Below, one piece after another: positions 1,543-46,858 of a stretch of DNA of 64,000 nt. Numbering within the stretch: the stretch's first letter is position 1; each line of letters begins with the position of its first letter. The notes under the pieces are model-generated. The model did no database searches, had not been told where the DNA came from, and saw only the letters and a program-made list of their open reading frames with translations. The stretch is from NCBI GenBank assembly GCA_020621865.1, contig JAHRYW010000006.1, positions 1 to 64,000 on the forward strand, in the 5' to 3' direction. The DNA comes from Betaproteobacteria bacterium. Lineage in GTDB: Bacteria > Pseudomonadota > Gammaproteobacteria > Burkholderiales > Rhodocyclaceae. A program made the translations under genes and the position numbers.

Positions 1543-2349
1543 TCACTTCCCGTCAAGCTGGTCGTACACCGCCGTCGCCACCTTGGCCAGTTCGCCCTTG
1601 GCAATGCCGGCCGACAAGGCATAGCCGAACTTGCCCTCGACCCAGTAAAAGACGTTGATCTCGCCCTCGCGGGCGAAGCGGAAGCCGGTTTCCGGCTTGC
1701 CCGCGTTTTCGGTGGTCACGTACAGCGTCATGCGCTGGCCGCTGGCGTCCTGGTACATGAACTGGGCAACCGGGCCGCTATTGCCGGGCAGCAGGCGGCC
1801 GCCGACCAGTTCGTAGCCGAGGCCGCCCAGCTTGGGCGGCTTGACCGGCGTGCCGAGACGTTTGGACAGCCATTTGACCAGTGCTTCCTCCTGGTCGGCC
1901 GTGACCTCGACCGGGCGCCGTGCGTCCGGGCTATAAACCACATGGGCGACGGCGGCCTGCTGCGGCAGCGGCACCAGGCGGGCCATGGTCTGGCCACCCG
2001 GATAGCGGTCGTGGGCCAGCCAGCCACCGATGCCGCCGAGCGTGGCGACCAGCACGCCAGCCGCCAGGCGCTGCAATACGGGAAATTTGAATTTTGGCCA
2101 TTTTTTGCCTTCGACCGTAGCATTCAGCGGCTGCACGGTCAGTGCCGACCAATGATCGGGCAAAGGCTCTTCCAGCACCGGGTCGAACAGCGCTTTGAGC
2201 GCCAGCTTTTGCGCCCGATAGGCGGCCACCCGCTCGGCGTCCTCGGGGTGCCCGGCCAGCCAGGCTTCGACCTCGCCCCGCCGCGCCGCGGTCAAGGCAT
2301 CGTCGACATAGGCTTGCAGGTCGTCTTCGGTCATCTTCAGCGGGTTCAT
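1543..2349 (-). CDS. Transmembrane anti-sigma factor
   Basis: This 268-residue protein probably binds and inhibits the ECF sigma factor encoded just upstream, with which it shares a 4-base ATGA overlap. Residues 1-70 form a cytoplasmic anti-sigma-like domain (LQAYVDDALTAARRGEVEAWL, as in RskA/FecR-type regulators). A single membrane segment lies near 95-112 (AAGVLVATLGGIGGWLA), followed by a periplasmic domain of about 150 residues. Bases 2081-2125 carry one copy of the dispersed repeat, which encodes the Lys/aromatic stretch NATVEGKKWPKFKF just before the membrane segment. That position tolerates basic residues. The role is inferred from gene order and topology. Confidence 0.85.
   Translation of the reverse strand: MNPLKMTEDDLQAYVDDALTAARRGEVEAWLAGHPEDAERVAAYRAQKLALKALFDPVLEEPLPDHWSALTVQPLNATVEGKKWPKFKFPVLQRLAAGVLVATLGGIGGWLAHDRYPGGQTMARLVPLPQQAAVAHVVYSPDARRPVEVTADQEEALVKWLSKRLGTPVKPPKLGGLGYELVGGRLLPGNSGPVAQFMYQDASGQRMTLYVTTENAGKPETGFRFAREGEINVFYWVEGKFGYALSAGIAKGELAKVATAVYDQLDGK
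2081..2125 (-). repeat. Dispersed 43-bp element, copy 1 (inside anti-sigma gene)
   Basis: Minus strand: GAATGCTACGGTC, GAAGGC, AAAAAAT, GGCC, AAAATTCAAATTTCC. Sense to the gene, coding NATVEGKKWPKFKF. Confidence 0.92.
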
Positions 2350-2846
2350 CTTACGACCCTCAGGTTGGGGCTGGACTGCCGGCCCGCCATGATCACGCGC
2401 AAGCGCTCCCGCCCGCGCGCCAGGCGGGACATCACGGTACCGGCCGGAATACCCAGCGCGGCAGCCACTTCGGCGTAACTCATCTCTTCCAGGGCGACCA
2501 GCAGCAGCACTTCGCGCTGCTCGTCCGGCAACTGGCGCAGGGCCGCCTCGATATCCATCATTTCCAGGCGATCAGTCTGGGTGGCGCGCGTCGGCACATC
2601 GTCGGCCTCCTCGTCGAGCGAAAGGGTAGACAAGGCACCGCGCCGCAACTGGTCCACCCGCAGGTTATGCATGATGCCGAACAGCCAGGCGCGCAGATCG
2701 CTGCCCGGCCGCCATTGGGCAAAGCGGCTCCAGGCCCTTTCCAGCGTGTCCTGCACCAGATCGTCCGCCGCCGCACGGTCGCCGAGCATCGCCCGCGCAT
2801 AGCGGCGCAGGCGGGGCAACTCGGCAAGGATCGTGCGGCTGTCCAC
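2346..2846 (-). CDS. ECF-type RNA polymerase sigma factor
   Basis: This 166-residue sigma-70 family protein directs RNA polymerase to a small regulon. Region 2 is seen in residues 1-80 (DLVQDTLERAW and LRAWLFGIMHNLRVDQLRR). Region 4 lies in the last third (LPDEQREVLLLVALEEMSYAEVAAALGIPAGTVMSRL, a helix-turn-helix). It begins with GTG at 2844-2846. The gene lies 9 bases after the lipoprotein gene stop and overlaps the anti-sigma gene by 4 bases, so all three are probably co-transcribed. The size matches the RpoE-like/EcfG-size class. The signal it answers to is not visible. Confidence 0.93.
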   Translation of the reverse strand: MDSRTILAELPRLRRYARAMLGDRAAADDLVQDTLERAWSRFAQWRPGSDLRAWLFGIMHNLRVDQLRRGALSTLSLDEEADDVPTRATQTDRLEMMDIEAALRQLPDEQREVLLLVALEEMSYAEVAAALGIPAGTVMSRLARGRERLRVIMAGRQSSPNLRVVR

Positions 2847-2855
2847 GGTATCGGG

Positions 2856-5354: not shown

Positions 5355-5378
5355 GCCCAGCCACTGAGACAGCGCAGC

Positions 5379-8324: not shown

Positions 8325-8368
8325 AAATGCTACGGTCGGAGGCAAAAATCGGCCAATTTTCGAAGAAT
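8325..8368 (+). repeat. Dispersed 43-bp element, copy 2 (intergenic)
   Basis: AATGCTACGGTC core at 8326-8337, then GGAGGC, A-tract AAAAAT, CGGCC and AATTTTCGAAG. It lies between the rnpB promoter and the 3' end of the Lrp-type gene. Confidence 0.9.
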
Positions 8369-12117: not shown

Positions 12118-12893
12118 GACGCGGTATTGCGCCGCCCCGGGCGGAACTGCCAGGTATCTTCGTAATACGCCAGGTCCTCGCTGTCCGGCGTGACACCGGG
12201 GATGCCGAGCAGCGGCAAAGGCGAGAAGTCGCGCGGTCGGGCGTATTGGCCGCTTTTCAATTTGGCCGAAAAAATGCCATCGACCGTAGCATTCAGCGCC
12301 CTGGCCTCCAGCGCCAGCCATGCCTCGGGTATTTCGCAGAGGATCGCCTTGGCGGTCAGTCCGCGAAACGGCTTCAGCAACTGCTCGTAGGTGGCGTGGC
12401 CGAAGATGACGAAGCGCATGCAGCGCTTCACGTCATCGCGCCGCTCGACGAACAACTCCTGCCAACGAAAACCGCGCAACAGCTCTAGCAGTTCCGGCTG
12501 CGTGGATAGCACGCCGATACCGCATTCGTCGAAATGGGTCAGCGCGTCGCGGGCCATGCCGCGCTCTGCGCCGGGCGCCTGCATGGCGCGCATGTGAGCG
12601 GCGCTGACGGCGATCTTGGTCTGTGGAAAACTCAGCCAGACCAGCGCGTTGAAGAAATCGTGCCAGTTATCGGGCCGGGTTTCGACCTCGCCGCTGTCCC
12701 AGATCCGGCATTCGTAAACCAGGCCGTCCGGGCGCGGCGGCACGAAGCGCACCCGCTGGCCGTTTTCGGTATGAATCGGGAACTGCTCGGCCAGTTCGGC
12801 CACCGCCTGCGCATCGGGCCGTGGCGGCAGGCGGTCCAGCCAGTGGCGCAGCGGATCGAACAGCGGCGCCGCGTACAACTCGCCGGCACTCAC
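12114..12893 (-). CDS. DUF3025 domain-containing protein
   Basis: This 259-residue protein matches the DUF3025 family by [17 protein letters not shown] (about residues 77-93) and [16 protein letters not shown]. Function is unknown. It has no signal peptide. It overlaps the convergent infA stop by 4 bases and its start overlaps the upstream lipoprotein gene by 4 bases, so it is probably translated from the same mRNA as that gene. A repeat copy at 12253-12294 encodes [14 protein letters not shown] in the C-terminal quarter, in the same frame as the copy in the anti-sigma gene. Confidence 0.85.
12253..12294 (-). repeat. Dispersed 43-bp element, copy 3 (inside DUF3025 gene)
   Basis: Minus strand: GAATGCTACGGTC, GATGGC, T-tract ATTTTTT, CGGCC, AAATTGAAAAG. 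Sense to the gene, coding [14 protein letters not shown]. Confidence 0.9.
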
Positions 12894-15245: not shown

Positions 15246-15608
15246 ATGCAGGCAAAGGCCAACGATACCACCACCGCTCGCGGCCGCGAAGCTGAAGAAA
15301 GGGCCGCCAAGCATCTTGAATGCTACGGTCAGCGGGTTATTTCGCGCAATTTCAGAATTCGGGGCGGCGAGATCGACCTGATCTGCAGGGATGGCAAGAC
15401 ATTGGTCTTCGTCGAGGTGCGCCAGCGCAGCCGCAGCGACTTCGGTGGCGCCGGCGCCAGCATCACGACCGCCAAGCGCCGGCGCATCGTGCTCGCCGCG
15501 CAGCATTACCTGGCCGGCCAGCCGGCTTGCGACTGCCGTTTCGACTGCGTGTTGATCGACGGCGACAAGCTCGAATGGATCAAGAATGCGTTTGCTGCCG
15601 ACGATTAG
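15246..15608 (+). CDS. yraN: YraN/UPF0102 family nuclease-like protein
   Basis: This 120-residue protein starts at ATG 15246. It has the UPF0102 restriction-endonuclease-like core GGEIDLICRDGKTLVFVEVRQRS (acidic residues of a PD-(D/E)XK fold) and the family RN[FW]R motif before it. The family is linked to Holliday junction-type folds, but its activity is uncertain. A repeat copy (15318-15360) encodes ECYGQRVISRNFRI exactly where relatives carry their conserved xxGYxILxRNxR motif, so protein and DNA constraints overlap there. It is followed by a HIRAN gene that overlaps it by 23 bases. Confidence 0.93.
   Translation: MQAKANDTTTARGREAEERAAKHLECYGQRVISRNFRIRGGEIDLICRDGKTLVFVEVRQRSRSDFGGAGASITTAKRRRIVLAAQHYLAGQPACDCRFDCVLIDGDKLEWIKNAFAADD
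15318..15360 (+). repeat. Dispersed 43-bp element, copy 4 (inside yraN)
   Basis: GAATGCTACGGTC (15318-15330), AGCGGG, TTATTTCGCGC, AATTTCAGAATTC. The A/T tracts are partly replaced to keep the conserved YraN motif. Confidence 0.85.
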
Positions 15609-22515: not shown

Positions 22516-22560
22516 GAATGCTACGGTCGGCGGCAAAAAAGGGGCAAAAACCGGATTTTC
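22516..22560 (+). repeat. Dispersed 43-bp element, copy 5 (intergenic)
   Basis: Core GAATGCTACGGTC (22516-22528), GGCGGC, then A-rich tract AAAAAAGGGGCAAAAA and CCGGATTTTC. It lies in the divergent gap between the MFS gene and the SPFH gene, just upstream of the SPFH promoter. Confidence 0.9.
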
Positions 22561-24189: not shown

Positions 24190-24267
24190 GATCGGGCGAA
24201 AAATGAAATCAGAATATTCTGATGGCAAGTCGCTCCAGCGGCAAGCGATCACTTGCTTTTATGGAAA

Positions 24268-24313
24268 GCAAAATTTGAAAATTGGCCATTTTTTGCCGCC
24301 GACCGTAGCTTTC
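24268..24313 (-). repeat. Dispersed 43-bp element, copy 6 (intergenic)
   Basis: Read on the minus strand: GAAAGCTACGGTC core (the only copy with AAAG in place of AATG), GGCGGC, tract AAAAAAT, GGCC, then AATTTTCAAATTTTGC. It lies in the uvrA leader region, just upstream of the uvrA promoter. Confidence 0.9.
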
Positions 24314-24322
24314 GAGCCGGGC

Positions 24323-24332
24323 TTGCTATAGT
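24323..24332 (+). promoter_or_regulatory. Extended -10 promoter of uvrA
   Basis: TTGCTATAGT (24323-24332) contains an extended -10 element, TGC followed by TATAGT, 31 bases before the uvrA ATG. I see no clear LexA box in this gap. Confidence 0.5.
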
Positions 24333-24363
24333 TCCCCCTTCCCCGAACACAGAAGCCACAGCG

Positions 24364-27185
<2,822 letters not shown>

Positions 27186-27189
<4 letters not shown>

Positions 27190-27557: not shown

Positions 27558-27575
27558 GCGCTGCGCTCGACCGGG

Positions 27576-28154: not shown

Positions 28155-28253
28155 GAACAATTTCCGGACGGTCGACTGCAGTGACCACTGACTATGCCAT
28201 CAGGTTCCGGCGCCAACAATTTTGCTGGCCGATGGCCGCTTCCGGCCCCGCGT

Positions 28254-29573: not shown

Positions 29574-29622
29574 GGACAGGCTTTTCCGGCCGCTTGGCGG
29601 CACGAGGAAACGGCAGTTCGCA

Positions 29623-30357: not shown

Positions 30358-30386
30358 GGCGACGCATGACGAGGAAATAATCGGGC

Positions 30387-30427
30387 AGTATAAAGCCATA
30401 CACCCGTTTGAAATGACTAGTCATTTC
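30387..30427 (-). promoter_or_regulatory. Putative promoter with 18-bp palindromic operator
   Basis: On the minus strand TATACT (30387-30392) is a good -10 box, 30 bases before the binding-protein ATG. The perfect palindrome GAAATGACTAGTCATTTC (30410-30427) lies exactly at the -35 position, 17 bases further, and starts one base beyond the addA stop. This arrangement suits a repressor site or an activator-replaced -35. No T run follows, so it is unlikely to be an addA terminator. Confidence 0.5.
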
Positions 30428-30428
30428 C

Positions 30429-33400
30429 CTAGCCGGGCAATTCGACCAGTTTTCCCTGCAACGGAAAGTAGATGGCCAGGCGCAGCGGCAACGGGTCGCC
30501 GGCGAACAGGCCGGCATAGCGGGCGAGCTGCGGCCGGTAGCTGGCGGCACGCTTGGGCAGTTCGTCTTCGGGCAGGCGGACGGTCTTGTAGTCGATGATC
30601 CAGCGGCAGCCGTCGGCGACGAAGGTGCGGTCGATCACGTGATGGGCGACTGCCTCGCCGTCGCGGCTGGTCCACGCCTGTTCGGCGCCGCCCTGCGGAT
30701 GATCGGCCAGCAGCCAGCGGCCGGTTTCGGAGGCGATCGTGGTTTCGAGCGCCGCGACGACCTCGGCGGCACCGCTGTCGGCCTCGGGCTCGCTGTGGCC
30801 CTGGCCGCGCAGCCAGCGGCGGTAAGCGGGCAGCAGGGCGCTGAATGCTACGGTCACCGGCTTTTTTTGCCCATTTTTCGAAATCAGTTCCAGGCAGCGA
30901 TGGACCAGCGTGCCGACCGAGGCTTCGAGCGACAGGCCGGTTTCAACGCCATCGAGATCGAGCGGGTTGTCGGCCGGGCGCAGGCCCTCGGGGATGGCGG
31001 CCAGTGTTTCCGCCAGGCCGACGGTGCGCAGGCGGACCAGTGGCGGCACGAAGGCGGCCGGGTCGATGGCCGGGCGCAACGCCTCGGCCGCGGGATTATC
31101 GGCCAGCGCCGCGGCGAACACCGGCTGGGCGACGCCGGGCCAGAGCAGCTTGAGCAGCGTGCCGGCGGCCGGGGGCTTCAGGCCGTCGTCCTTTGCTTCA
31201 TCGGCAACCGCGACGCCGAGCAGATGCAGCGTGCGAATGGCCCGCGTCGCCGCAACGTAGAGCAGGCGCTCGTCCTCGTGCGCGGCGCGTTCGGCTTCGA
31301 GTTTTTTCAGGTAGTCGTAGACAGTCGGCTCGCCGTTGTCGGCGCCCTTTTGCTTGAGCGGGGCGACCAGCAGATGTTCATCGCCATCGGCGCCGGCCAC
31401 CTCGTCCCAGAGCAGCAGGCTGCTGTCGTTGCCGCCGGTTTCGCGGTGCAGGCCGGGCAGGATCACGGTGTCGAATTCGAGGCCCTTGGATTTGTGCACG
31501 GTCATCATCTGCACCGCGTCGCCCAGCGGGTCGGACGGCGCATAGAGTTCGGCGGCGTGGGCAGCCAGCGTCTCGGCATCGAGATTGCGGGCGGCAGCCA
31601 GCCGGTCGACCAGGCGGAAGAAAGCCTCGACGTCCGGCAGCGCCTCCGGCGCCTCCAGGCAGCGCGGCCCGCCGAGCATCAGCCAGACACCTTCCAGCCA
31701 GCGCCGTGCCGGCTGGCGGTCGCGCCCGGCGAAGGCGGTGCGCAGCACGTCGCGCAGATGCCGCAGGCGTTGCCGGCCGTCGGCGGACAGGCGGGCGACG
31801 CGTGCTTCGTCCTGCATCAGCTGCCAGATCGTCGATTGCTTGTCGCCGGCGGCCAGCGCGTGCAGGTCGGCCAGGGTCAGGCCGCACCACGGGGCGCGCA
31901 GCAGGGCCAGCCAATGCACGCGGTCGGCGCGGTGATGCAGGGCGCGGAACAGGGTCAGCAGATCCTGCACATGCTGGCGACCATCCAGGCCCTCGATATC
32001 GACCGCCTGGAAGCGCAGCTCCGGCGCGCTTCGGCGGATTTCGGCGACCAGCGCATCGAGGTGGCTGCGGGCGCGGACCAGCACCGCGATGCTTTCCTGC
32101 GGCGATTCGCGGCGGGCGGCGCGGATGATGGCCAGCACCTGGCGGGCCTCCTCGCCGACCGCATCGGCGCCGGGACGCTCGATGACCGGATGGACGACGA
32201 CGCCGCTGTCGGCCCGTGCCGGCCGGGTGGCAGCCGAGGCGGCGTAGCGCACGGCGCCGGCCTCGGGGCCGTCTTCAGCCGGGAAGATGCCAGGGAAAGC
32301 GGCATTGACCCAGTCGACGATGCCCGGGTAGGAGCGGTTGTTGCGGAACAGGCGCAGGTGGCCGAGCCGGATGTCGCCGATGCCGCGCTCGCGGACGCGC
32401 AGGAACAGGCCGACGTCGGCCTTGCGGAAGCGGTAGATCGACTGCATCGGGTCGCCGACCACGAACAGCGTCCGGCCGTCGTCCGGCATCCAGCCACGGG
32501 TCAACTTTTCGAGCAGTTCGACCTGGCTCGGGCTGGTGTCCTGGAATTCATCGACCAGCAGGTGGCGGATGCGGTAGTCGAGGGCCTGGGCCAGGTCGGT
32601 CGGCGCCTCGTCGTCGCCGAGCGCCAGCCCGGCGCGGGCGGCGATTTCGATGAAATCGACCTCGCCGGCCTCCTGGAAGGCCAGCCACAACTGCCCGGCG
32701 GCCAGCCGGAGCAGGCGCGAGAAGCATTCGACGGTGGCCCATTCGGCCTCGCTCAAAACGGGCTGCGGCAGGCCGGGCAGCATGGCCAGCGTTTCTTCCA
32801 GCCCGGCCACGCCGCGCAGGTCGGCGAGCAGTTCGAGCATCGCCTTTTTCTGCTCGGCGAACTCGGCGCCGGCTGGAAAGCCGAGGCGCTTGTCCACCGT
32901 CTTGCGCAGCGTGCCGGTGCCGGTCAGCAACAGCCGGCCGACCGCCTGCCAGCGGGGCAGGTCGGCAAATGCTACGGTCAGCGGCAAATTCCAGTCAGAA
33001 ATGGAATCCAGCGCCCCCGGCGCATTAGCCGCGGCAAAGCGGGCCAGCGGCATCAGCAGCGTCTGCAGGCGGCGGTCGACCAGGCGCTCGACGGCCGCCA
33101 GGTCGCGCTCGATCAGCGCCGCGAAGCCTGCCTCGACCTCGGCCTTCATCGCCCCGCTTTCGATGCGCGAGGCGTGGTGCAGCCACTGGTCGCGGCGGCC
33201 GAGCATGGCCACGAGCAGCTTTTCCAGCCGCCCGGCGTTGTTGTCCATGAAGGCCAGCGCGGCGCCGACCACCTCGGCATCCGGCGTCCCGGCTTCGAGC
33301 ATCTCCAGCGTCCGGCGGGCGGCGGTGGCGTAGTGCGCCTCGGCATCCTCGCTGACCCCAGGCTGGCTGCCGAAGCGGCTGAGGTAGGGCATCTGCCGGG

Positions 33401-33791
33401 CCAGGCTGGCGCACAGCGCGTCGATGGTGGTGATGCGCAGGCGGCCGGGGTGGCCGAGCAGTTGCCAGCCGCGCCCGGCATCGTGGGCCAGCACGCGTTG
33501 GGCCAGATCGAAGGTCAGGCGCTTGTGGGCGGCTTCCGGCATTTCGCCGCCGGCCGCCCGCTCCAGGCTGCCGAGGATGCGGTCGCGCATCTCGGTCGCT
33601 GCCTTGTTGGTAAAGGTCAGCGCCAGCACCTCTTCCGGTTCGTCGACCACCGCCAGCAGGCGCAGGTAGCGCTGGGTCAGCAGCTCCGTCTTGCCCGCCC
33701 CGGCCGGCGCCTCGACGATGAAGGAGGCGACCTCCAGCGCCCGCTGACGGGCGAGATCATCCTCGGCAAGGCGGTCGAGTGCAGCGCTCAA
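30429..33791 (-). CDS. addA: AddA-like helicase/nuclease (UvrD family)
   Basis: This 1120-residue protein is an ATP-dependent helicase with nuclease for double-strand break repair. N-terminal Walker A APAGAGKT (29-36) is followed by LALTFTNKAATEMRDRI, the helicase motif LLVDEFQDTSPSQVELL, GDPMQSIYRFRKAD and VMTVHKSKGLEFDTVILPG. The C-terminal ~150 residues form a PD-(D/E)XK nuclease (LVHRCLELI, IDRTFVADGCRWIIDYKT). The family is the AddA-like UvrD protein common in beta- and gammaproteobacteria. Two dispersed repeat copies lie inside (30843-30885, coding NGQKKPVTVAF, and 32967-33009, coding LPLTVAFADL). Its start overlaps the response regulator by 4 bases. Confidence 0.9.
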   Translation of the reverse strand: MSAALDRLAEDDLARQRALEVASFIVEAPAGAGKTELLTQRYLRLLAVVDEPEEVLALTFTNKAATEMRDRILGSLERAAGGEMPEAAHKRLTFDLAQRVLAHDAGRGWQLLGHPGRLRITTIDALCASLARQMPYLSRFGSQPGVSEDAEAHYATAARRTLEMLEAGTPDAEVVGAALAFMDNNAGRLEKLLVAMLGRRDQWLHHASRIESGAMKAEVEAGFAALIERDLAAVERLVDRRLQTLLMPLARFAAANAPGALDSISDWNLPLTVAFADLPRWQAVGRLLLTGTGTLRKTVDKRLGFPAGAEFAEQKKAMLELLADLRGVAGLEETLAMLPGLPQPVLSEAEWATVECFSRLLRLAAGQLWLAFQEAGEVDFIEIAARAGLALGDDEAPTDLAQALDYRIRHLLVDEFQDTSPSQVELLEKLTRGWMPDDGRTLFVVGDPMQSIYRFRKADVGLFLRVRERGIGDIRLGHLRLFRNNRSYPGIVDWVNAAFPGIFPAEDGPEAGAVRYAASAATRPARADSGVVVHPVIERPGADAVGEEARQVLAIIRAARRESPQESIAVLVRARSHLDALVAEIRRSAPELRFQAVDIEGLDGRQHVQDLLTLFRALHHRADRVHWLALLRAPWCGLTLADLHALAAGDKQSTIWQLMQDEARVARLSADGRQRLRHLRDVLRTAFAGRDRQPARRWLEGVWLMLGGPRCLEAPEALPDVEAFFRLVDRLAAARNLDAETLAAHAAELYAPSDPLGDAVQMMTVHKSKGLEFDTVILPGLHRETGGNDSSLLLWDEVAGADGDEHLLVAPLKQKGADNGEPTVYDYLKKLEAERAAHEDERLLYVAATRAIRTLHLLGVAVADEAKDDGLKPPAAGTLLKLLWPGVAQPVFAAALADNPAAEALRPAIDPAAFVPPLVRLRTVGLAETLAAIPEGLRPADNPLDLDGVETGLSLEASVGTLVHRCLELISKNGQKKPVTVAFSALLPAYRRWLRGQGHSEPEADSGAAEVVAALETTIASETGRWLLADHPQGGAEQAWTSRDGEAVAHHVIDRTFVADGCRWIIDYKTVRLPEDELPKRAASYRPQLARYAGLFAGDPLPLRLAIYFPLQGKLVELPG
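30843..30885 (+). repeat. Dispersed 43-bp element, copy 7 (inside addA)
   Basis: GAATGCTACGGTC (30843-30855), ACCGGC, T-tract TTTTTTTGCCC, ATTTTTCGAAATC. It runs antisense to addA and replaces the usual A-tract by T. Confidence 0.9.
32967..33009 (+). repeat. Dispersed 43-bp element, copy 8 (inside addA, degenerate downstream part)
   Basis: Core AAATGCTACGGTC (32967-32979), AGCGGC, AAATTCCAGTCAG, AAATGGAATCC. The core is intact but the A/T tracts are poor. Antisense to addA. Confidence 0.75.
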
Positions 33792-34174
33792 GTCGCGTCT
33801 CCGGGCAGATCGAGCAGCCGGCGGATGGCCGGTAGCAGGTCGGCCAGATGTCCCTTGGGGACGAAGGCGTCGGCGCCCAGCCTGACCATCACGCTGCCCT
33901 TGGTCTCGCCGATGGTGCCGGAGATCAGGATCACCGGCACCATCGGCCAGCGCCGCTTCAGGTAGGCGAGGTTTTCCGGGAAATAGATGCCCGGCACCGC
34001 GTAATCGGACAGCACGAGGTCCCAGCCGCCCTCTTCCAGCGCGGCCAGCATGGCGGCCTGGTTATCGACCCAGCGGCAGCGAAAGTCGATGCCGCTGCGC
34101 TTCAGTTCGCGTTCGACGAGCAGGAAGTCCGCCTCGTTGTCCTCGATGTGGAGGATGGCCAGCGGGCCGTCCAT
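33788..34174 (-). CDS. Stand-alone response regulator receiver protein
   Basis: This 128-residue single REC domain has the acidic pocket E11-D12, phosphoacceptor Asp57 (DLVLSDYAVPG) and ILISGTIGET with the lysine of FVPKGHLADL near the end. It has no output domain, so it probably relays phosphate or acts by protein contact. It overlaps addA by 4 bases and follows the FMN reductase gene by one base, so it sits inside the addB-addA operon, an unexpected place for a signalling protein. Confidence 0.93.
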   Translation of the reverse strand: MDGPLAILHIEDNEADFLLVERELKRSGIDFRCRWVDNQAAMLAALEEGGWDLVLSDYAVPGIYFPENLAYLKRRWPMVPVILISGTIGETKGSVMVRLGADAFVPKGHLADLLPAIRRLLDLPGDAT

Positions 34175-34175
34175 C

Positions 34176-34724
34176 TCAGGCTTTCAGCTTCCGGGTCAGA
34201 TCGGCCAGCACCCGCATCTGGGCGGCGACCTGGCCGATCAGCTTAGCGTCGGTCAGGTTACCGTCGGCATCGAAGGCGCCGGCAAAGGCGCTGGCGAAGA
34301 CTTCCGGCTTGTTGACCATGTGCAGGTCGAGAAAAACACAGACCTGGCGCAGGTGGTACTGGGCACGCGAGGTGCCCATGCCGCCGCCGGCGCCCATGAT
34401 CGCGGCAGTCTTGCCGGCGAGCAGCGCGTTGTCCGGTTCGCGCGACAGCCAGTCGATGGCGTTCTTCAGCGCCGGGGCGATCGAGTAGTTGTATTCCGGA
34501 CAGGCGAAGACCAGCCCATCAGCGGCGCGGGCCTGGTCCATCAGGCGCTGGACGGCGGCCGGGCGCTCGGTCAGGTCGACGTTGTAGAACGGCACCGCCG
34601 AGAGGTCGGCGATTTCCATGGTGACGCCTTCCGGCAGTTCGGCCATCGCCGCCCGCAACAGGCCGGCGTTGGTCGACTGGCGGCGCAGGCTGCCGCAGAT
34701 ACCCAGCAATTTCAGTTCACGCAT
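34176..34724 (-). CDS. NAD(P)H-dependent FMN reductase
   Basis: This 182-residue flavodoxin-like protein starts at ATG 34722-34724 behind AGGAG. Motifs are LLGICGSLRRQSTNAGLLRAA (FMN phosphate loop), FACPEYNYSIAPALKNAIDWLSR and AAIMGAGGGMGTSRAQYHLRQV. It belongs to the YhdA/ChrR-type NADPH-dependent FMN reductase (quinone or azo reductase) family. It is encoded between addB and the response regulator with gaps of 17 bases and one base. The connection to DNA repair is unclear; protection from redox damage is a guess. Confidence 0.93.
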   Translation of the reverse strand: MRELKLLGICGSLRRQSTNAGLLRAAMAELPEGVTMEIADLSAVPFYNVDLTERPAAVQRLMDQARAADGLVFACPEYNYSIAPALKNAIDWLSREPDNALLAGKTAAIMGAGGGMGTSRAQYHLRQVCVFLDLHMVNKPEVFASAFAGAFDADGNLTDAKLIGQVAAQMRVLADLTRKLKA

Positions 34725-34741
34725 GTTGGTTCTCCTGTTCT

Positions 34742-37426
34742 TCAGTTGGCCACGGTAATCGGTGCGGCGGCCGCGGCCAGCAGGCGGCGCCGTTCGGGCA
34801 GGCGGAGCAGGGGCAGGACTTCGCAATACTGCAGCCCCTTCTCATCGGCGAAAACGACGCCGGCCCGGCCCTGCTTCACTTCGCTGGCCACGGCGTGCAG
34901 ACGCTCGCGCCAGTGAGTAATGACGGCGATCCAGTCGGGAAATTCCGCCGGATCGAAAATTTTCTGCTTGTCGTCACCGATGCCCTGCACGCCGGGCAGG
35001 ATGTCCTTTTCGTCGGCGACGCCGGCGAACCCCGGCTTGTCGAGCAGGACCTTGGCGAAGACGACGGCCGCTACTTCGTCATTGACCAGCGCGGCGTAGA
35101 TCGGCAGCTGCGGCTCGGTGATGCGCTGCTCGGCCCAGTTCTTGGTGTCGATCGCGGCCCCGGTCTTGTAGTCGATGATCACCTGGCGGCCGTCGGCCAA
35201 CTGGTCGATGCGGTCGACAACCATGCGCACCTTGATGCCTTCGATCTCGACTTCGGCCGGCTGTTCGCAGGCAATCACCGCGAACCCCTGGCCGCGTCTG
35301 GCCTCGACAGCCAGCCAGAGGTCGAGCAGGCGGGCCAGGCGGGCCGCTTCGAGTTCGCGGAAGCGGGCCGGCAGGCTTGTCCGCCGGTCCAGTTCAAAGG
35401 TCTGCAAGGCCTTGGTCACGGCCTCGGCAATCGCCTCCCGGCGCGCCGCCTCGCCCAGCGCCGCCAGCGCATCGGACGAGGGAACCGCCGTCCAGAAGGC
35501 CTCCAAGGCTTCGTGAACGAGCGTGCCGCGGGCGGCCGGATCGAGGCCCTCGACCGCCTGCTCCATCGCCTCGCCACCGAGCCGGAACTGGTAGTAGGCC
35601 CAGGCCGGGCAGATCGCCTGGGCGCGCAGCAGCCAGCTGCCGCCGGAGACCTTCTCGCCCTCGGCCACCGGCGGCGCCATGGCGTCGTCGAGCAGTTCAA
35701 GTGCGGCCGGCGCTTCAGCGGCCATGGCCCGGGCCAGCGTCGCCACCTCAGTCGGCAATCCAGCGGCCGGCGGCATGCCGGCGATCAGCGGACTGGGGCG
35801 CAGCACGCGGTTGCCATCGGCCTGCGCCCAGGAAAATGTCACCTGCGGCGCCGATTGCCGCAGGCGGGCATGCACGCGCTGGGCGAAATCGAGTTCAACC
35901 TCGGCGCTGGCGTGCGCCGACCCGGCGCTGCGCTGCAATTCGGCCGGCAGCAGCGGGCTCGGCCGGGGCGGTGGCGGCCACAGGTCGTCGTTCATGCCCA
36001 TCACCCACAGCGCGTCGAATTCGAGGCCGGCGCTTTCGAGCACGCCGAGCACCTGGATCGCCGGCCGGCCCCGCGTTTCCGGCTGGAACAGCCGCTGCCG
36101 GCAGAGTTGCGACAGGCGGCGCACGGCCTCGGCAAAAGCCAGCGGGCCGAGCAGGGCATCGAGCCGGCCGAGGCCGTCGAGCACCTCGCCAAAGGCGCGA
36201 TGGGCCTGGAATTCGTGGCTGGACAGCGAACGGTCGCCCGGCCAGCCGGCCGCCTTCAGGCAGGCGCGGAAAACGCCGGCCCATTGCCCCGGCAACAGCT
36301 TGCGGCTGGCCAAGCTGGCCGCGGTCACGAAGGCGTCGAGCGCCGCCACCGTCTGCGGACAAAGGGGCGGCGCCGACTCGGCCAGGCGGGCGGCCAGCCG
36401 CAGCAAGGCCGGCAAGGTGGTGAAATACGGCAGATCGCGGCGCAGCGCCGCATCGAGCCGCGCCCGGCCGTCGGCTTCAGCTTCGGCGGCCGACCAGCCG
36501 CCGGCCAGCAGCAAGGCCGACAGGCGGCTCTGCTCGACCTTGGCCCGGCCGCTGCCGAGCGCCAGCAGGTCGAGGGCGACGTGGATCAGCGGCAGATCGG
36601 CCAGCGCCCGGCCGAGCGAAAAGTTGAAGCAGCGCGGCATTTCGGCCGCATCGGGACGGATCAGCGCCGGGTGCAGGGCATCGTCGAGCAGAAACTCCAG
36701 CCGGTCGCGCACGCCGGCCAGGTCGGGTGCCACGATGCCGAGCCGGCAGGCCGGATTCTCGGCCAGCCGCGCCTGCGCCCAGGCGACGACGGCCGAACAT
36801 TCGGCATCGACGTCGGCACACGGCAAAACCTGGCAAATGCTACGGTCACCGCCATTTTTTGCCCAATTTTCAAATTCCACCCCACGCCCGGCCAGCGCCG
36901 CCATCAGGTCGCGCTCCAGCGGCGTGTAGCGGTCGAAGCCGGCAAAGCAGACGCTCGCCGGCAAGGCGAAATGGCCGGCCGCGATCAAGCCGATCAACTG
37001 CCGGTGCAGGCCGGCCGTATCGACCCAGCCGCCGCTGCGGCAGCGCTTCTCGAACTCCGCCTGCCAGCCGAGAAACAGCTTTGCCTCGTCGGACAATGCG
37101 CTGCCGCCCGGCTGCAGCTTCCAGATCCGGCACAGCGCCTGCGCCTCGGCCGCCGAGGCAGCCATGCCCTGAACGTCGAACAGCGGCGCGGCTTCGGTCA
37201 GCGACCCGGCGATGACCTTTTCCCAGAGCAGGCGCTCGGCGAAGGCGTCGAGGGCCAGCGGCAACTCGGCGACGCCGGTCAGCAAGGCCTCGTCGGCCAG
37301 CCCGCCCAGCCACTGACCGACGGTCAGGGCCTGCCGGGTGCGCCAGACCGTCCCCGTGGCCGGCAACTCGCCGCGCAGGGTTTGCGCCAGGCGGGTCGTG
37401 GCACAGAGGGTCAGGCAGTCGCTCAA
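34742..37426 (-). CDS. addB: AddB-like PD-(D/E)XK nuclease/helicase-fold subunit
   Basis: This ~894-residue protein is the partner of AddA in break processing. I place the start at TTG 37424-37426 (LSDCLTLCATTRLAQTLRGEL) with CGAGG six bases upstream; the longer open frame runs into the comEA-like gene region in another frame and lacks sense. The middle resembles an inactivated UvrD helicase fold (LDALLGPLAFAEAVRRL, DALWVMGMNDDLWPPP). The C-terminus is a PD-(D/E)XK nuclease (VRMVVDRIDQLADGRQVIIDYKTG). It fits the 'probable DNA repair protein' family of beta- and gammaproteobacteria. A repeat copy lies at 36835-36878. I see no four-cysteine iron-sulfur set. Confidence 0.85.
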   Translation of the reverse strand: MSDCLTLCATTRLAQTLRGELPATGTVWRTRQALTVGQWLGGLADEALLTGVAELPLALDAFAERLLWEKVIAGSLTEAAPLFDVQGMAASAAEAQALCRIWKLQPGGSALSDEAKLFLGWQAEFEKRCRSGGWVDTAGLHRQLIGLIAAGHFALPASVCFAGFDRYTPLERDLMAALAGRGVEFENWAKNGGDRSICQVLPCADVDAECSAVVAWAQARLAENPACRLGIVAPDLAGVRDRLEFLLDDALHPALIRPDAAEMPRCFNFSLGRALADLPLIHVALDLLALGSGRAKVEQSRLSALLLAGGWSAAEAEADGRARLDAALRRDLPYFTTLPALLRLAARLAESAPPLCPQTVAALDAFVTAASLASRKLLPGQWAGVFRACLKAAGWPGDRSLSSHEFQAHRAFGEVLDGLGRLDALLGPLAFAEAVRRLSQLCRQRLFQPETRGRPAIQVLGVLESAGLEFDALWVMGMNDDLWPPPPRPSPLLPAELQRSAGSAHASAEVELDFAQRVHARLRQSAPQVTFSWAQADGNRVLRPSPLIAGMPPAAGLPTEVATLARAMAAEAPAALELLDDAMAPPVAEGEKVSGGSWLLRAQAICPAWAYYQFRLGGEAMEQAVEGLDPAARGTLVHEALEAFWTAVPSSDALAALGEAARREAIAEAVTKALQTFELDRRTSLPARFRELEAARLARLLDLWLAVEARRGQGFAVIACEQPAEVEIEGIKVRMVVDRIDQLADGRQVIIDYKTGAAIDTKNWAEQRITEPQLPIYAALVNDEVAAVVFAKVLLDKPGFAGVADEKDILPGVQGIGDDKQKIFDPAEFPDWIAVITHWRERLHAVASEVKQGRAGVVFADEKGLQYCEVLPLLRLPERRRLLAAAAAPITVAN
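36835..36878 (+). repeat. Dispersed 43-bp element, copy 9 (inside addB)
   Basis: Core AAATGCTACGGTC (36835-36847), ACCGCC, T-tract ATTTTTTGCCC, AATTTTCAAATTCC. It runs antisense to addB and encodes FENWAKNGGDRSIC there. Confidence 0.9.
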
Positions 37427-37454
37427 ACGGGCCTCGGATCGTTGCGTCTGGCGA

Positions 37455-38174
37455 TCAATAGGAAGCCGCCGGCTGGGCCGGTCTGGCAGGCGCCGCGGGC
37501 TTGGCCGGGGCTGCCGGCGAAGCGGGTGCTGCAGCTGGCTTGGCCGGTGCCGGTCCGGCGGCGGACGGCCGAGCCGGAGAGGGCTGGGCTGGCGATGGCG
37601 TGGCCGGTTTGGCCATCGGCGTGGCCGGCACTGCCGGCTTGGGCGCACTGGCCGGCTGGGCGGGCATCGCCGGTTTGGCCGGGCTTGCCGGTGTTGCCGG
37701 CTTGCTTTCCATCACGGGCCTGGCCGGCACCGCCGGGCCGGCCGGACGGGCCGGTTCGGCCGCCAGCGGCTTGGTCGACGGGGCAGCGGGCTTTTCCGCC
37801 GGGCGAGCCGGCGCTGCAGCAGGTTTAGGCATATCGGCTGCCGGACGCGCCACTGGCGCTGCAGGCGCCGGCCGGCTGGCTGCAGCCGGGGCCACCGTGG
37901 GAGCAGGAGCACGCGACGCGCCGCCGACCGTCACGTCGCCGCGCAAATCCTTCAGCGTGCTCGGCCCAATGCCGGGCACGTTTTCAAGCTCGCCCACCGA
38001 CTTGAAGGGGCCGTTTTTCTTGCGGTAATCGATGATGGCCTGGGCCTTGGTCGGACCGATGCCCTTGAGGGCGTCCAACTCTTCTTTCGTCGCCGTATTG
38101 ATGTTGATCTGGGCCAGAGCCAGGCCGGCCCACAGCAGGCAGGAGGCGGCAACCGTCAGGAAACGCGATTTCAT
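37455..38174 (-). CDS. comEA: ComEA-like helix-hairpin-helix protein with Pro/Ala/Lys-rich tail
   Basis: This 239-residue protein has a signal peptide (1-21), then ININTATKEELDALKGIGPTKAQAIIDYRKKNGPFKSVGELENVPGIGPSTLKDL, in which two helix-hairpin-helix motifs (LKGIGPTKAQ and VPGIGPSTLK) form the ComEA DNA-binding domain. ComEA binds incoming DNA in the periplasm during natural transformation. Residues ~85-239 are a low-complexity tail of PAKPA/PARPA-type repeats, with many lysines and arginines, about twice the length of the folded part. Most ComEA proteins of this class end after the domain. GGAG precedes the ATG. The addB gene follows within 30 bases. Confidence 0.85.
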   Translation of the reverse strand: MKSRFLTVAASCLLWAGLALAQININTATKEELDALKGIGPTKAQAIIDYRKKNGPFKSVGELENVPGIGPSTLKDLRGDVTVGGASRAPAPTVAPAAASRPAPAAPVARPAADMPKPAAAPARPAEKPAAPSTKPLAAEPARPAGPAVPARPVMESKPATPASPAKPAMPAQPASAPKPAVPATPMAKPATPSPAQPSPARPSAAGPAPAKPAAAPASPAAPAKPAAPARPAQPAASY

Positions 38175-42860: not shown

Positions 42861-45800
42861 TGCGCCGCCTCGTTTCAATCGCCGCTCTCGTCATTCTTGG
42901 CCTCGCCGGCTGGCTGGGCAGCAGCGAAAGCGGCCTGCGCGCCATTGCCGGGCTGGCCGCCAGCGTCAGCGGCGGGCGACTGCAGATCGACGTGGCCAGC
43001 GGCCGCCTGCTTGGCGCCTTCAGCCTCGGCCAGGTGCGCTGGACGGACCCCGAGCAACAGATAGAGATCAGCGGCCTGCACGTCGACTGGTCGCCGGCCG
43101 CCCTGCTGCACGGCACGCTGCAGATCGCCACGCTGGGCATCGAACAACTGCACGTCACCCTGCGGCCGAGCCCGACGCCGACACCGCTGCCAACCGACCT
43201 GCGTCTGCCGCTGGCGGTCGATGCCGAAAAGATCAGCATCGCGACACTGCAATGGGGCGAGGCGCTGACCGTCACCGACCTCGTCGCCCGCCTGGACAGC
43301 GACGGCCGCCGTCATCGGATCGACGGCTGGCACGCCCGCACCGCCGGCATCGCGCTCAGCGGCAACGCCACGCTCGACGGCGCCGCCCCCTTCCCGGTCG
43401 AGGCCAACGCACAGATTGCCGGCCTGCTCGACCAGCGGCCGCTGGCCGTCGCGCTGACCGCCAGCGGCCTGCTCGAACGCCTGGCCGTTTCAGCAATCGC
43501 CACGCAGGGCGTCGCCGGCCATGCCGAGATTGAATTGACGCCCTTTGCCAGCGCCGCTTTTGCCAATGCCCGCCTGCAACTCGACGACATCGACCCGGCC
43601 GCCTGGCAGCCCGGCGCGCCGCAGGCCAGCCTGAGCATCGTCGCCGACGTCCAGCCGCAGGGCGAGGGCATCGTCGGCAGCTTCGGCCTGACCAATCATC
43701 GGCCCGGCCCGCTCGACCGGCAGCGCCTGCCGCTCGCCACGCTGGCCGGCACGCTGGAATGGCAAGGCAACGTCGCCCGCTTCGCCAGCCTGCAAGCCGC
43801 ACTGCCCGGCAACGGCGAACTGACCGGCCACGGCGAGTGGCAGAACGGCGCGCTGACGCTGGATCTGGCGGTCCGGCGCCTGCAGGTCGGGCAAATCGCC
43901 ACGATGCTACGGTCGCCGGCATTAAATGGCCAAATTTCAAGTGCTGTCGGCGGCGACCGGCAGAATCTCAACGTCGACCTGACCGGCGCCGGCTTCCGCC
44001 TGCGCGCCGAGGCCCACCACGCCGCCGGCCGCGTCACCCTGCCGCAACTCCGGCTGGAATCCGGCGATGCCCGGCTGGCCGCGCACGGCGAAATCGCCCT
44101 CGACGGCGAGCGGCGCTTCACGGCCGAAGGCGAATTGCAGCGTTTCGACCCGAGCCGCTTCGGCCAGCTGCCGGCGGCGCAGATCAACGCCCGCCTGAAG
44201 GCCGACGGCAAGCTCTCGCCGCAGCCGGTCGCCGAGGCCACTTTCGTGCTGCAGGACAGCCGGCTGGCCGGCCAGCCGCTGAGCGGCGAAGGTCGCGTCG
44301 CCATCGCCTGGCCGCGCATCCCGCGCCTCGATATCCAGCTGGCCGCCGGCGCCAACCGGCTGGTCGCCCAGGGCGCCTTCGGCCAGGCCGGCGACCGCGT
44401 GACGGTCGATGTCGCCGCCCCGCAACTCGCCCCCTACGGCCTGGACGGCGGCCTCGACGGCCACCTCGAACTGAGCGGCCTGAGCGACAGCCCGCGCCTG
44501 GCCCTGAGCCTCGATGCGGCCCGGCTCGGCCTGCCCGGGGTGGTCCGCCTGGGCGGCCTGAGCCTGAAGGCCGAGCTCGGCGGCGCGGCCAATTCGCCGC
44601 TCGCCCTGCGTCTCGATATCGCCACCCTGGCGACACCCGAGCAGCCGGGACTGGCCCGCAACCTCCACCTGCAGGGCGAGGGCAGCAACCAGGCGCACCG
44701 CCTGAGCGCCAGCGCCGAACTGGCCGGCGAGCACCGCCTGCAAATGCAGGCCGAAGGCGGCCTGAGCGCCGACCGCAGCAGCTGGCAAGGCAGGCTGAGC
44801 GAAGCCCGGCTGAGCAGCCCGGACCCGGCGCGCAATGTGACGCTCGTTGCCCCGGCCCCGCTGCAGCTGGCGACGACCGGCTGGAACGTCGGCCCGGCAC
44901 GCCTGGCCGGCAATCCGCTGGACTGGCAGGCGACGCTGCAGGCCGGCGCCGATGGCCGGCAGTTGCGCGCCACGCTGAGCGCCCGTGGCAGCCGGATCGG
45001 CCAGGTCGACGGCGAACTGGGTGCTGCCCTGCGCAGCCCGTGGTCGCTCGATCGGCAGGCGCGCTGGCAGGGCCGAGTGCAAGCCAAGGTGGCCGACCTC
45101 GGCTGGCTGGGCGAAGTGATCGGCGCCGGCTGGCACAGCGCCGGCCAGGGCGAGGGCGAACTGCGGCTGGCCGGCACGCCGGCCGTGCCGCTGGTCAGCG
45201 GTCACTTCCGTGGCGACCAGCTGGCCCTGCGCCTGCCCGAGCAGGGCCTGAACCTGGCGCGTGGCGAACTCGATGTAGACCTGCAGGACAACCTGCTGCG
45301 CATCAACCGGCTCGGTTTCGACAGCCTGCTCCAGCCCCTGCCGCGCACCCTTCGCCTCGAAGCCCGCGACAACCTGGCGGCGCTGACCGAAAAACCGGGC
45401 CGCCTCGAGATCACCGGCGAAATGCGCATCGACGCCGCGCTGTCCCCCGGCACCCCGGCCGCCAACGGCACCAACGACAGCGCCTTCCTCGATTTCCGCC
45501 TCGACCGCCTCGGTGCTTTCCAGCTGCCCGACCAGTGGGTGGCGCTTTCCGGCAGCGGCCGGCTGACCTGGCAAGGCGGCACGCTGGGCGCCCACGGCAA
45601 GCTGGCGGTCGATGCCGGTTACTGGCAGCTGGCGCCCGGCGGCACGCCCCGCTTGTCCGACGACGTCATCGTCAAACGCGCTGGCAGCGAGAAGGTGAAA
45701 ACATCCCTGCGGCCGAGGCTCGATCTCGACATCAGCACCAATCTCGGTCGCAATTTCCTGTTCCGCGGCGCCGGCCTGAGCAGCCGGCTGACCGGCGACC

Positions 45801-46537
45801 TGCGCATCACCGCCCAGGGCCGCGACCTGCCCCGGGCCAGCGGCACGATCCGCACCCTGGGCGGACGCTTCGACGCCTACGGCCAGAAGCTCGACATCGA
45901 GCGCGGCATCCTCAGCTTCAACGGCCTGCTCGACAACCCGGGGCTGGACGTGCGCGCCCTGCGCAAGGGACTGGCCGTCGAGGCCGGGGTGCAGATCGGC
46001 GGCACGGCACAAAAACCGGTGGTCAAGCTGGTCTCCGACCCGGAACTGCCCGACGCCGAAAAGCTCGCTTGGCTGGTTCTTGGCCACGGTCCGGAACAGA
46101 TGGGCGCCGGCGACGCGACGCTGCTTTTCTCGGCGGCCGGCGGCCTGCTCGGCAACGATTCGGGCAACCTGATCCAGCAGCTGAAAAAGACCTTCGGCTT
46201 CGACGAGTTCGGCATCCGCCAGGGCGCCATCGGCGACAGCGGCGGCCGCCAGGCGACCAGCCGGGTGGCCGGCGGCAGCAGCGTGGACACGGCAGCCACC
46301 ACCGGCCAGCAAATCCTCAGTGTCGGCAAGCGGCTGTCGTCGAATGCCCTACTCTCCTACGAGCAGACGCTGGGCCGCGCCGAGGGCATCGTCAAGCTGA
46401 CCGTCAACCTGACGCGCCAGATCGCCGTCGTCGGCCGCGCCGGCAGCGACAATGCGCTCGACGTCTTCTACACCCTGACTTTCGGCCGCAAGCCGACAAG
46501 CGCCGGCAAGGCCCCTCCGCCGGCCGAAGCCCCCTGA
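42860..46537 (+). CDS. tamB: Translocation and assembly module subunit TamB
   Basis: This 1225-residue protein is anchored by an N-terminal helix (SIAALVILGLAGWLGSS) and spans the periplasm as a long beta-taco that works with TamA and transports phospholipids. The C-terminal DUF490/TamB domain is clear: LDIERGILSFNGLLDNPGLDVRAL, LVSDPELPDAEKLAWLVLGHGPEQM and FGFDEFGIRQGAI, ending near QIAVVGRAGSDNALDVFYTLTFGRK. A repeat copy (43902-43942) codes ATMLRSPALNGQISS in frame. The size fits the family. Confidence 0.95.
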   Translation: MRRLVSIAALVILGLAGWLGSSESGLRAIAGLAASVSGGRLQIDVASGRLLGAFSLGQVRWTDPEQQIEISGLHVDWSPAALLHGTLQIATLGIEQLHVTLRPSPTPTPLPTDLRLPLAVDAEKISIATLQWGEALTVTDLVARLDSDGRRHRIDGWHARTAGIALSGNATLDGAAPFPVEANAQIAGLLDQRPLAVALTASGLLERLAVSAIATQGVAGHAEIELTPFASAAFANARLQLDDIDPAAWQPGAPQASLSIVADVQPQGEGIVGSFGLTNHRPGPLDRQRLPLATLAGTLEWQGNVARFASLQAALPGNGELTGHGEWQNGALTLDLAVRRLQVGQIATMLRSPALNGQISSAVGGDRQNLNVDLTGAGFRLRAEAHHAAGRVTLPQLRLESGDARLAAHGEIALDGERRFTAEGELQRFDPSRFGQLPAAQINARLKADGKLSPQPVAEATFVLQDSRLAGQPLSGEGRVAIAWPRIPRLDIQLAAGANRLVAQGAFGQAGDRVTVDVAAPQLAPYGLDGGLDGHLELSGLSDSPRLALSLDAARLGLPGVVRLGGLSLKAELGGAANSPLALRLDIATLATPEQPGLARNLHLQGEGSNQAHRLSASAELAGEHRLQMQAEGGLSADRSSWQGRLSEARLSSPDPARNVTLVAPAPLQLATTGWNVGPARLAGNPLDWQATLQAGADGRQLRATLSARGSRIGQVDGELGAALRSPWSLDRQARWQGRVQAKVADLGWLGEVIGAGWHSAGQGEGELRLAGTPAVPLVSGHFRGDQLALRLPEQGLNLARGELDVDLQDNLLRINRLGFDSLLQPLPRTLRLEARDNLAALTEKPGRLEITGEMRIDAALSPGTPAANGTNDSAFLDFRLDRLGAFQLPDQWVALSGSGRLTWQGGTLGAHGKLAVDAGYWQLAPGGTPRLSDDVIVKRAGSEKVKTSLRPRLDLDISTNLGRNFLFRGAGLSSRLTGDLRITAQGRDLPRASGTIRTLGGRFDAYGQKLDIERGILSFNGLLDNPGLDVRALRKGLAVEAGVQIGGTAQKPVVKLVSDPELPDAEKLAWLVLGHGPEQMGAGDATLLFSAAGGLLGNDSGNLIQQLKKTFGFDEFGIRQGAIGDSGGRQATSRVAGGSSVDTAATTGQQILSVGKRLSSNALLSYEQTLGRAEGIVKLTVNLTRQIAVVGRAGSDNALDVFYTLTFGRKPTSAGKAPPPAEAP
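43902..43942 (+). repeat. Dispersed 43-bp element, copy 10 (inside tamB)
   Basis: Core CGATGCTACGGTC (43902-43914), GCCGGC, ATTAAAT, GGCC, AAATTTCAAGTG. It is the only copy that starts CGATG and reads in frame as MLRSPALNG. Confidence 0.85.
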
Positions 46538-46858
46538 GCCACCGGGCCGGCTGAGCGGCCCCCTCCGCCCCGAATGCTACGGTCAGGCGGAAAAAAAGCT
46601 CAAATTCGAAAAACGGTATTACCCGCCGCCGGACGGCCCTGCGCCGCCACAGCCGGAGATGCCGATCGGCCTGTCGGACTACGCCGTTCGACCTAAGGGT
46701 TTTCACGTACCAGCCGACCGGGCTATGGCCTTCCATCTCCCCGCCCCCCTCCTCTGCTTTGCCGCAAAGCTACCAAGAGCGAATGTTCCGGTGGTTTGCC
46801 GCTACGTATCCTCCCCCCGGATCAAAAAAACATCTTGGGCAACTTTGCGGGGGGCAAC
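46538..46858 (+). promoter_or_regulatory. Intergenic region upstream of narK1
   Basis: This 321-base gap has no plausible gene. It holds a dispersed repeat copy near its start and, at 46756-46770, the perfect inverted repeat GCTTTGC-C-GCAAAGC, which could be an operator for the nitrate genes. I looked for FNR (TTGAT-N4-ATCAA) and NarL (TACYYMT) sites and found no convincing match. GGGGGG at 46850-46854 serves the narK1 GTG start. Confidence 0.4.
46572..46614 (+). repeat. Dispersed 43-bp element, copy 11 (intergenic)
   Basis: GAATGCTACGGTC (46572-46584), AGGCGG, AAAAAAAGCTC, AAATTCGAAAAAC. It is the last copy in the window, between tamB and the nar locus. Confidence 0.9.

What the first reader, a model, noticed from the sequence alone, without database searches (positions are those of the whole stretch)
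2081..46614. An 11-copy dispersed ~43-bp element with an invariant GCTACGGTC core
Copies lie at 2081-2125(-), 8325-8368(+), 12253-12294(-), 15318-15360(+), 22516-22560(+), 24268-24313(-), 30843-30885(+), 32967-33009(+), 36835-36878(+), 43902-43942(+) and 46572-46614(+). All 11 contain GCTACGGTC and nine contain AATGCTACGGTC. After the core comes a five- to six-base GC block (usually GGCGGC-like), an A- or T-tract of about seven, GGCC or GCCC, then AAATTT- and AAATTC-like runs. A 9-mer should occur less than once by chance in both strands of 64 kb. Seven copies are within genes and four between genes. I know of no description of this family.
Basis: seen in the sequence. Interest (0 to 1): 0.92.

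Follow-up and report, generated by a model that had tools for sequence, protein, structure and literature searches.

The report
Uptake-signal-like repeats in Azonexus genomes
A short DNA signature is repeated about 300 times in this bacterium and varies in 'dialects' among its relatives; it looks like the labels by which two other bacterial families recognise and take up DNA of their own kind, which would make this a third such lineage.

Summary
GCTACGGTC occurs 11 times in the window (0.33 expected) and AATGCTACGGTC 310 times in the 2.9-Mb genome (control 0). From 113 copies the element reads R-AATGCTACGGTC-RRCSSS-W6-N-GGCC-AAAWT-YS-AAAWW: a fixed core and A/T tracts 10.5 bp apart, the anatomy of the Pasteurellaceae uptake signal sequence (USS). 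The genus is Azonexus/Dechloromonas. A dialect-blind pattern finds 190-566 copies in 16 of 76 genus genomes and no clear excess in 198 genomes of other genera of the order. Dialects keep CGGTC and differ to its left. Copies arise by point changes, not insertion. They are strand-neutral, rather evenly spaced, and six times rarer in low-GC DNA. I conclude that this is a USS-type self-recognition element kept by transformation (0.70). Against: uptake is untested; no receptor was found; comEC is broken in this MAG; 4 of 16 rich genomes lack a ComEA hit above cut-off. Unexpected: a 27-bp hairpin unit sits at one fixed spot inside some cores, with empty orthologous sites, and also inside an unrelated dispersed element of another genus.

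The parts
2084..2125 (-). element copy, inside ORF 1543-2349(-)
8325..8366 (+). element copy, intergenic
12253..12294 (-). element copy, inside a DUF3025 gene
15318..15359 (+). element copy, in frame inside a UPF0102/YraN gene; kept in a different dialect at the same site in G298
22516..22557 (+). element copy, intergenic
24272..24313 (-). element copy at the 5' end of a uvrA-like ORF (core AAAGCTACGGTC)
30843..30884 (+). element copy inside an UvrD-helicase/PDDEXK gene (AddA-like, name inferred)
32967..33008 (+). second element copy inside the same UvrD-helicase/PDDEXK gene
36835..36876 (+). element copy inside a PDDEXK gene (AddB-like, name inferred)
43902..43943 (+). element copy inside a tamB-like gene (core GATGCTACGGTC)
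46572..46613 (+). element copy, intergenic
37455..38174 (-). comEA-like gene (candidate partner: periplasmic DNA receptor of transformation)
   Evidence: TIGR00426 74.8 bits at 37929-38114; PF12836 79.8 bits

Best explanation
It is a species-specific DNA uptake signal of the Pasteurellaceae USS type. Inferred mechanism: a surface DNA receptor (type IV pilus or competence machinery, not identified) binds the core and the phased A/T tracts; fragments that carry the element are taken up and recombined more often, so copies that arise by chance mutation spread by biased uptake (molecular drive); when receptor specificity drifts, the left half of the core drifts genome-wide, which gives dialects. 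Shown here: copy number, anatomy, origin in place, dialects that change at orthologous sites, strand neutrality, even spacing, scarcity in low-GC DNA. Not shown: binding, uptake, receptor, present competence.
For: 310 exact 12-mers in 2.9 Mb, control 0. USS-like anatomy: A/T tracts centred about 10.5 bp apart downstream of a fixed core. Sharp consensus cloud: tail-only scan finds 85 perfect 12-mer cores, 19 with one, 7 with two, 3 with three, 0 with four mismatches. Origin in place: of 81 element-ortholog pairs (25 of 104 elements covered), 49 lack the core (4 or more mismatches) and none of these has a deletion over 5 bp. Dialects at the same site: GAATGCTACGGTC versus GAATTGCACGGTC. 190-566 copies in 16 of 76 genus genomes, control 0-11 over all 76. 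28 same-strand and 27 opposite-strand genic copies, 37 intergenic, 12 at gene edges. No strand bias about dnaA on C3 (12-, 10+ left; 12-, 9+ right). Gaps: none of 96 under 700 bp, 9.1 expected, CV 0.69, after leaving out the three largest. 3 elements in 26 low-GC 5-kb windows against 101 in 146 others; the two largest gaps hold transposition, resolvase and type I restriction genes. ComEA, DprA and type IV pilin genes are present in this genome.
Against: No uptake or binding data. comEC of this MAG is interrupted by about 2.35 kb and lacks a recognisable 3' part. ComEC occurs in 71 of 76 genus genomes, rich and poor alike, so presence does not track element number. ComEA (TIGR00426) is below cut-off or absent in 4 of the 16 rich genomes, one of them complete (G281), and in 5 of the other 60. 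No pilin cluster was restricted to rich genomes, in a partial survey. Density, about one per 8-9 kb, is far below the roughly one per kb of USS and DUS. No inverted pairs in the own sample. Element density rises with GC throughout (10.7, 12.5, 23.2 per 100 kb), so the low-GC depletion is not purely foreign versus own. With the three largest gaps kept in, CV is 1.06 and KS p 0.035.
Confidence: 0.7

Rival explanations
1. Binding site of a cytoplasmic nucleoid-organising, replication or repair protein (in the manner of Chi, KOPS, matS or SlmA sites).
For: Even spacing and phased A/T tracts suit an architectural protein; such sites also evolve in place.
Against: Asymmetric and strand-neutral about dnaA (against local GC skew 62 to 42 of 104, borderline), unlike Chi or KOPS; strong only in some species of one genus and at background in close relatives, with fast dialect turnover, which is odd for a core chromosome function.
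Confidence: 0.15
2. A transposable repeat (REP/MITE type) that spreads by copying.
For: Hundreds of dispersed copies; one genus.
Against: No insertion gap in 49 element-free ortholog alignments; A/T tracts vary as W rather than by descent; the left half differs by species at the same site.
Confidence: 0.04
3. A relict: uptake specificity was active in the ancestor and is now decaying in this lineage.
For: comEC interrupted in this MAG; also split in G298, which has 488 copies; sister clade of the own clade at background.
Against: The core cloud is still sharp, 85 perfect to 29 with one to three mismatches, so loss would be recent. This is the best explanation in the past tense.
Confidence: 0.25
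4. A regulatory site or transcription terminator.
For: 37 of 104 copies intergenic, above the non-coding share of about 6-11%.
Against: 55 of 104 lie inside genes, equally on both strands; no inverted pairs in the own sample.
Confidence: 0.03

Closest known systems
Uptake signal sequence (USS) of Pasteurellaceae (Hin AAGTGCGGT, Apl ACAAGCGGT)
   Same: Core of about 9-12 bp followed by two A/T-rich segments about a helical turn apart; inner GCGGT against (A/G)CGGTC here, and exactly GCGGTC in the G177 dialect; dialects; origin by point mutation; both strands; in genes and between.
   Different: Another class of bacteria; a GC block of six between core and first A/T tract; a third A-rich tract; density about a tenth; function unproven.
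DNA uptake sequence (DUS) of Neisseriaceae
   Same: Repeated, strand-neutral, dialects by clade, favours permissive regions.
   Different: DUS is continuous, 10-13 bp, without A/T tracts; sequence unrelated.
Chi / KOPS / matS type chromosome sites (recalled)
   Same: Hundreds of copies, in place, genome-wide.
   Different: Strand-polar or regional; the present element is neither.
REP/REPIN and very small mobile repeats (papers seen in listings only; SDRs of cyanobacteria recalled)
   Same: A fit for the 27-bp unit found inside some cores: tiny, hairpin-forming, sometimes tandem.
   Different: Not a fit for the main element, which does not insert.

Membership tests
USS (Pasteurellaceae) | Hundreds of copies far above chance on both strands | tested here: met
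   310 exact 12-mers, 140+/170-, control 0; density lower than USS
USS (Pasteurellaceae) | Core followed by two A/T segments about one helical turn apart | tested here: met
   tracts at +15..20 and +26..30, A/T 0.82-1.00 per column
USS (Pasteurellaceae) | Inner core GCGG | tested here: inconclusive
   ACGG in the own dialect; GCGG in the consensus of G177 (15 copies) and in some copies of other genomes
USS (Pasteurellaceae) | Arose by substitution, not insertion | tested here: met
   49 element-free alignments, longest deletion 5 bp
USS (Pasteurellaceae) | Clade-specific dialects | tested here: met
USS (Pasteurellaceae) | Inverted pairs that act as terminators (common, not universal) | tested here: not met
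   closest two of 104 own copies are 743 bp apart; overlapping inverted pairs do occur in some relatives, e.g. G328 C1:2524382/2524398
USS (Pasteurellaceae) | Preferential uptake of DNA that carries it | not testable with these tools
   needs a competent strain
USS (Pasteurellaceae) | Host is naturally competent | tested here: inconclusive
   ComEA, DprA, pilins present; own comEC interrupted
USS (Pasteurellaceae) | Host belongs to Pasteurellaceae | tested here: not met
   Azonexus/Dechloromonas
DUS (Neisseriaceae) | Continuous 10-13 bp motif with CTG core, no flanking tracts | tested here: not met
REP/MITE | Inserts into new sites | tested here: not met

The most novel reading that the evidence does not exclude
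Self-recognising DNA uptake evolved at least a third time, in Rhodocyclales, with USS-like anatomy and a near-USS inner core; and a 27-bp hairpin-forming mobile unit has specialised in landing at one fixed spot inside uptake-type sequences. It is found in cores of several Azonexus dialects, with empty sites, and in an unrelated 25-bp dispersed element of another genus: a parasite of uptake signals.
Probability: 0.35. Interest if true: 0.95.

Novelty: new variant of a known kind. Interest (0 to 1): 0.86.

Why it matters
A 2025 paper still names Neisseriaceae and Pasteurellaceae as the only families known to sort DNA by such motifs (PMC12616744, Introduction). A third lineage with cultured members, many dialects and species that lack the element is a natural experiment on how uptake specificity starts, drifts and is lost, and would help to find the USS receptor. 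The similar inner core (GCGGT, RCGGTC) asks whether kinkable DNA or a shared receptor fold drives convergence.

Tried and rejected
Family-wide count of the own dialect suggested restriction to one genome: 296 others had 0-7. This was a sampling effect, since the nearest species were not drawn; named neighbours L081 and L082 share the dialect.

Receptor hunt: PF07963 in 12 genomes (listing cut), 134 pilin-like ORFs clustered from 11 of them (my filter missed some). A cluster that looked rich-only was present in all 11 once read by hand. A variable two-gene pilin pair does not sort by element number. No candidate is claimed.

Rfam on three loci with the 27-bp unit: two matches, both far below gathering scores. 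Viral contigs hold no exact 25-mer of that unit. Plasmids: 6 records, Burkholderia and Paraburkholderia, partial cover.

ORFs of the comEC insert: no Pfam match in two ORFs.
Full report
Observation. GCTACGGTC is present 11 times in the window where 0.33 is expected. In the whole genome (G000, 2.9 Mb, 17 contigs, 74.65% complete) AATGCTACGGTC occurs 310 times, 140 on + and 170 on -, with none for the reversed pattern.

Anatomy. I took 800 kb of the genome besides the window and aligned 113 copies of GCTACGGTC without gaps. Conserved columns: R, AAT, GCTACGGTC, RR, C, SSS, six W (A/T 0.87-0.97), one free base, GGCC, AAAWT (A/T 0.82-1.00), Y, S, AAAWW; beyond that, background. The two main A/T tracts are centred at +17.5 and +28 from the G of GCTACGGTC, 10.5 bp apart. 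The tracts alternate between A and T runs, so they are conserved as A/T and not as letters. When only the tail is used to find sites, the core cloud is sharp: 85 perfect 12-mers, 19, 7 and 3 with one, two and three mismatches, none with four, among 220 hits (18 in the reversed control); the rest, as far as printed at a stricter threshold, are mostly shifted registers of the same sites, runs of N and a split form described below.

Relatives. Named neighbours from GTDB are Azonexus and Dechloromonas. Two near species (L081, L082) share AATGCTACGGTC; others carry the same tail after CGGTC with another left half. Consensus dialects, on 6-27 copies each..TsCcACGGTCAACcGG in G335, with similar forms in G348 and G298; tgCtGCGGTCgAC in G177; ctaCGGTCAACCgG in G281; CGGTCGACcGt in G147. 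Five poor genomes gave no copy in the 30-66 kb read of each. With the pattern CGGTCRNNNNNWWWWWNNNNNNWWWW, 16 of 76 genus genomes hold 190-566 copies, 26 hold 20-129 and 34 fewer than 20; the reversed control is 0-11. Among 198 genomes of other genera of the order no count exceeds 22, and none exceeds its own control by more than 6. Of 44 named genomes, 11 are rich, including Dechloromonas sp. Dech2017 (418); D. agitata (2) and D. hankyongensis (3) are not. On a one-gene tree of 47 rows the 12 rich rows need four changes, at least three forced by well supported branches: repeated gain or loss inside the genus.

Origin in place. I aligned 400-bp flanks of 104 tailed copies to 2.8 Mb of related DNA. 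25 elements were covered by 81 pairs: 10 keep the core (at most one mismatch), 22 differ at two or three places, 49 at four or more. In those 49 the longest deletion in the ortholog is 5 bp and 24 have none. At window 15318, inside a UPF0102/YraN gene, nine element-free orthologs align without a gap, while G298 has GAATTGCACGGTC for GAATGCTACGGTC. So elements are made by substitutions and a dialect can change at a fixed site. This is the test that Redfield and co-workers used for USS (PMC1626085, passages seen).

Distribution. With my own gene calls (coding 0.89-0.94), 55 of 104 copies are genic (28 same strand, 27 opposite), 12 at gene edges, 37 intergenic. There is no strand bias about dnaA on C3 (dnaA); against local GC skew 62 disagree and 42 agree. 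After leaving out the three largest gaps, none of 96 gaps is under 700 bp (9.1 expected), CV 0.69, KS p 0.004; with all 99 gaps CV is 1.06 and KS p 0.035. The three largest gaps (60.5, 53.8 and 27 kb) have GC 0.565, 0.563 and 0.548. Of ten large ORFs tested in each of the first two, several are mobile or restriction genes (TniQ, Mu/rve transposase, HsdRMS; HsdRM, resolvase, DDE transposase), while others are ordinary (dprA, mutY-like; dnaA, yidC): they are partly islands. Over all 5-kb windows 3 elements lie in 26 windows below GC 0.58 and 101 in 146 above; density keeps rising with GC.

Competence genes. ComEA lies in the window at 37455-38174(-). DprA is on C3; pilins are present. ComEC is found in 71 of 76 genus genomes and 51 of 51 good ones, so it does not separate rich from poor. 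TIGR00426 reaches its cut-off in 67 of 76; of the nine that do not, four are rich (G281, G299, G340, G357), which counts against the reading or means a diverged ComEA. The own comEC is in two pieces 2.35 kb apart and lacks a recognisable end.

Interpretation. What it works like: a USS. Steps shown: number, anatomy, in-place origin, dialects, strand neutrality, spacing, scarcity in low-GC DNA. Steps inferred: recognition by a surface receptor, biased uptake, molecular drive. Rivals are weighed in their field; the chromosome-site rival is the serious one, and the relict reading differs only in tense, so its odds overlap those of the best explanation. Is it a member of the USS family? Taxon is not met and uptake is untested, so I file it as a new variant.

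A 27-bp unit inside cores. Five copies in the own sample have the core split as AATGCTA (or a near form) | TCCCCCAAGGGGACTTCCT[T/G]CGGGGCG | CGGTC, then a normal tail. With part of the flanks in the pattern, 19 such places occur in G000, 9 in G346, 4 in G357, 1-2 in G281, G335, G177 and G348, and none in five others. The unit alone gives 20 in G000, so nearly all its own copies sit in cores. The halves follow each species' dialect. Orthologous sites in the own genome hold a plain element with exactly 27 bp less opposite six carriers (L302, L306, L307, L323, L327; L325; L306 also has a separate 9-bp gap); two more sites (L303/L311, L305) show a plain element but not a clean 27-bp gap. Gain is the simpler reading; precise loss is not excluded. 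The unit pairs as a hairpin with some matching double changes (C-G 51, A-T 6, G-C 1 at one pair), though the search expression allowed those letters beforehand. It occurs in 66 of 346 family genomes and 16 of 68 genera, in places as a 27-bp tandem. In most other genera its flanks show no element known to me. In genus g11, however, 7 of 10 loci have it inside CGCCGTN|27 bp|YYGCSGGGACTGACTTTT (one of them partial), and the plain form of that 25-bp element occurs 7-91 times per genome in 9 of 9 g11 genomes and not at all in 4 others.

Literature. PMC12616744: Introduction read in full. PMC1626085, PMC1939737, PMC3630211: passages only. Everything else was seen as listings. No listed paper joined Azonexus, Dechloromonas or Rhodocyclaceae with uptake sequences.

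Noticed in passing
G000 C1:17796, C1:50387, C3:356975, C4:92294, C4:102927 (loci L317, L320, L305, L322, L324) and relatives: A 27-bp hairpin-forming unit at one fixed spot and in one orientation inside element cores, with empty orthologous sites.
   Followed up: partly
genus g11, loci L349-L355 and L361-L390: A second, unrelated 25-bp dispersed element, CGCCGTNYYGCSGGGACTGACTTTT, 7-91 strict copies per genome on both strands; it too can hold the 27-bp unit. It may be another uptake-type sequence; Sulfuritalea-like named loci L139, L146 and L159 hold near forms.
   Followed up: partly
L300:8703-11052 (G000 comEC); G298 C33:109525/143311; G352 C1:2218607/2251157: comEC is split by an insert in three genomes (about 2.35, 34 and 33 kb), in the last two near the same profile position (26-29): a possible insertion hot spot.
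   Followed up: partly
window 24253-37648: Four of 11 elements lie in or at DNA repair genes (uvrA-like, two AddAB-like genes) close to comEA; Neisseria DUS are said to favour such genes (recalled). Not tested genome-wide.
   Followed up: no
G332, G328, G588, G593: In dialects that read CGGTCGACCG the core is palindromic and overlapping inverted pairs occur about 13-16 bp apart.
   Followed up: no
window 49859-56462: Respiratory nitrate reductase genes (alpha and beta subunits by Pfam).
   Followed up: no
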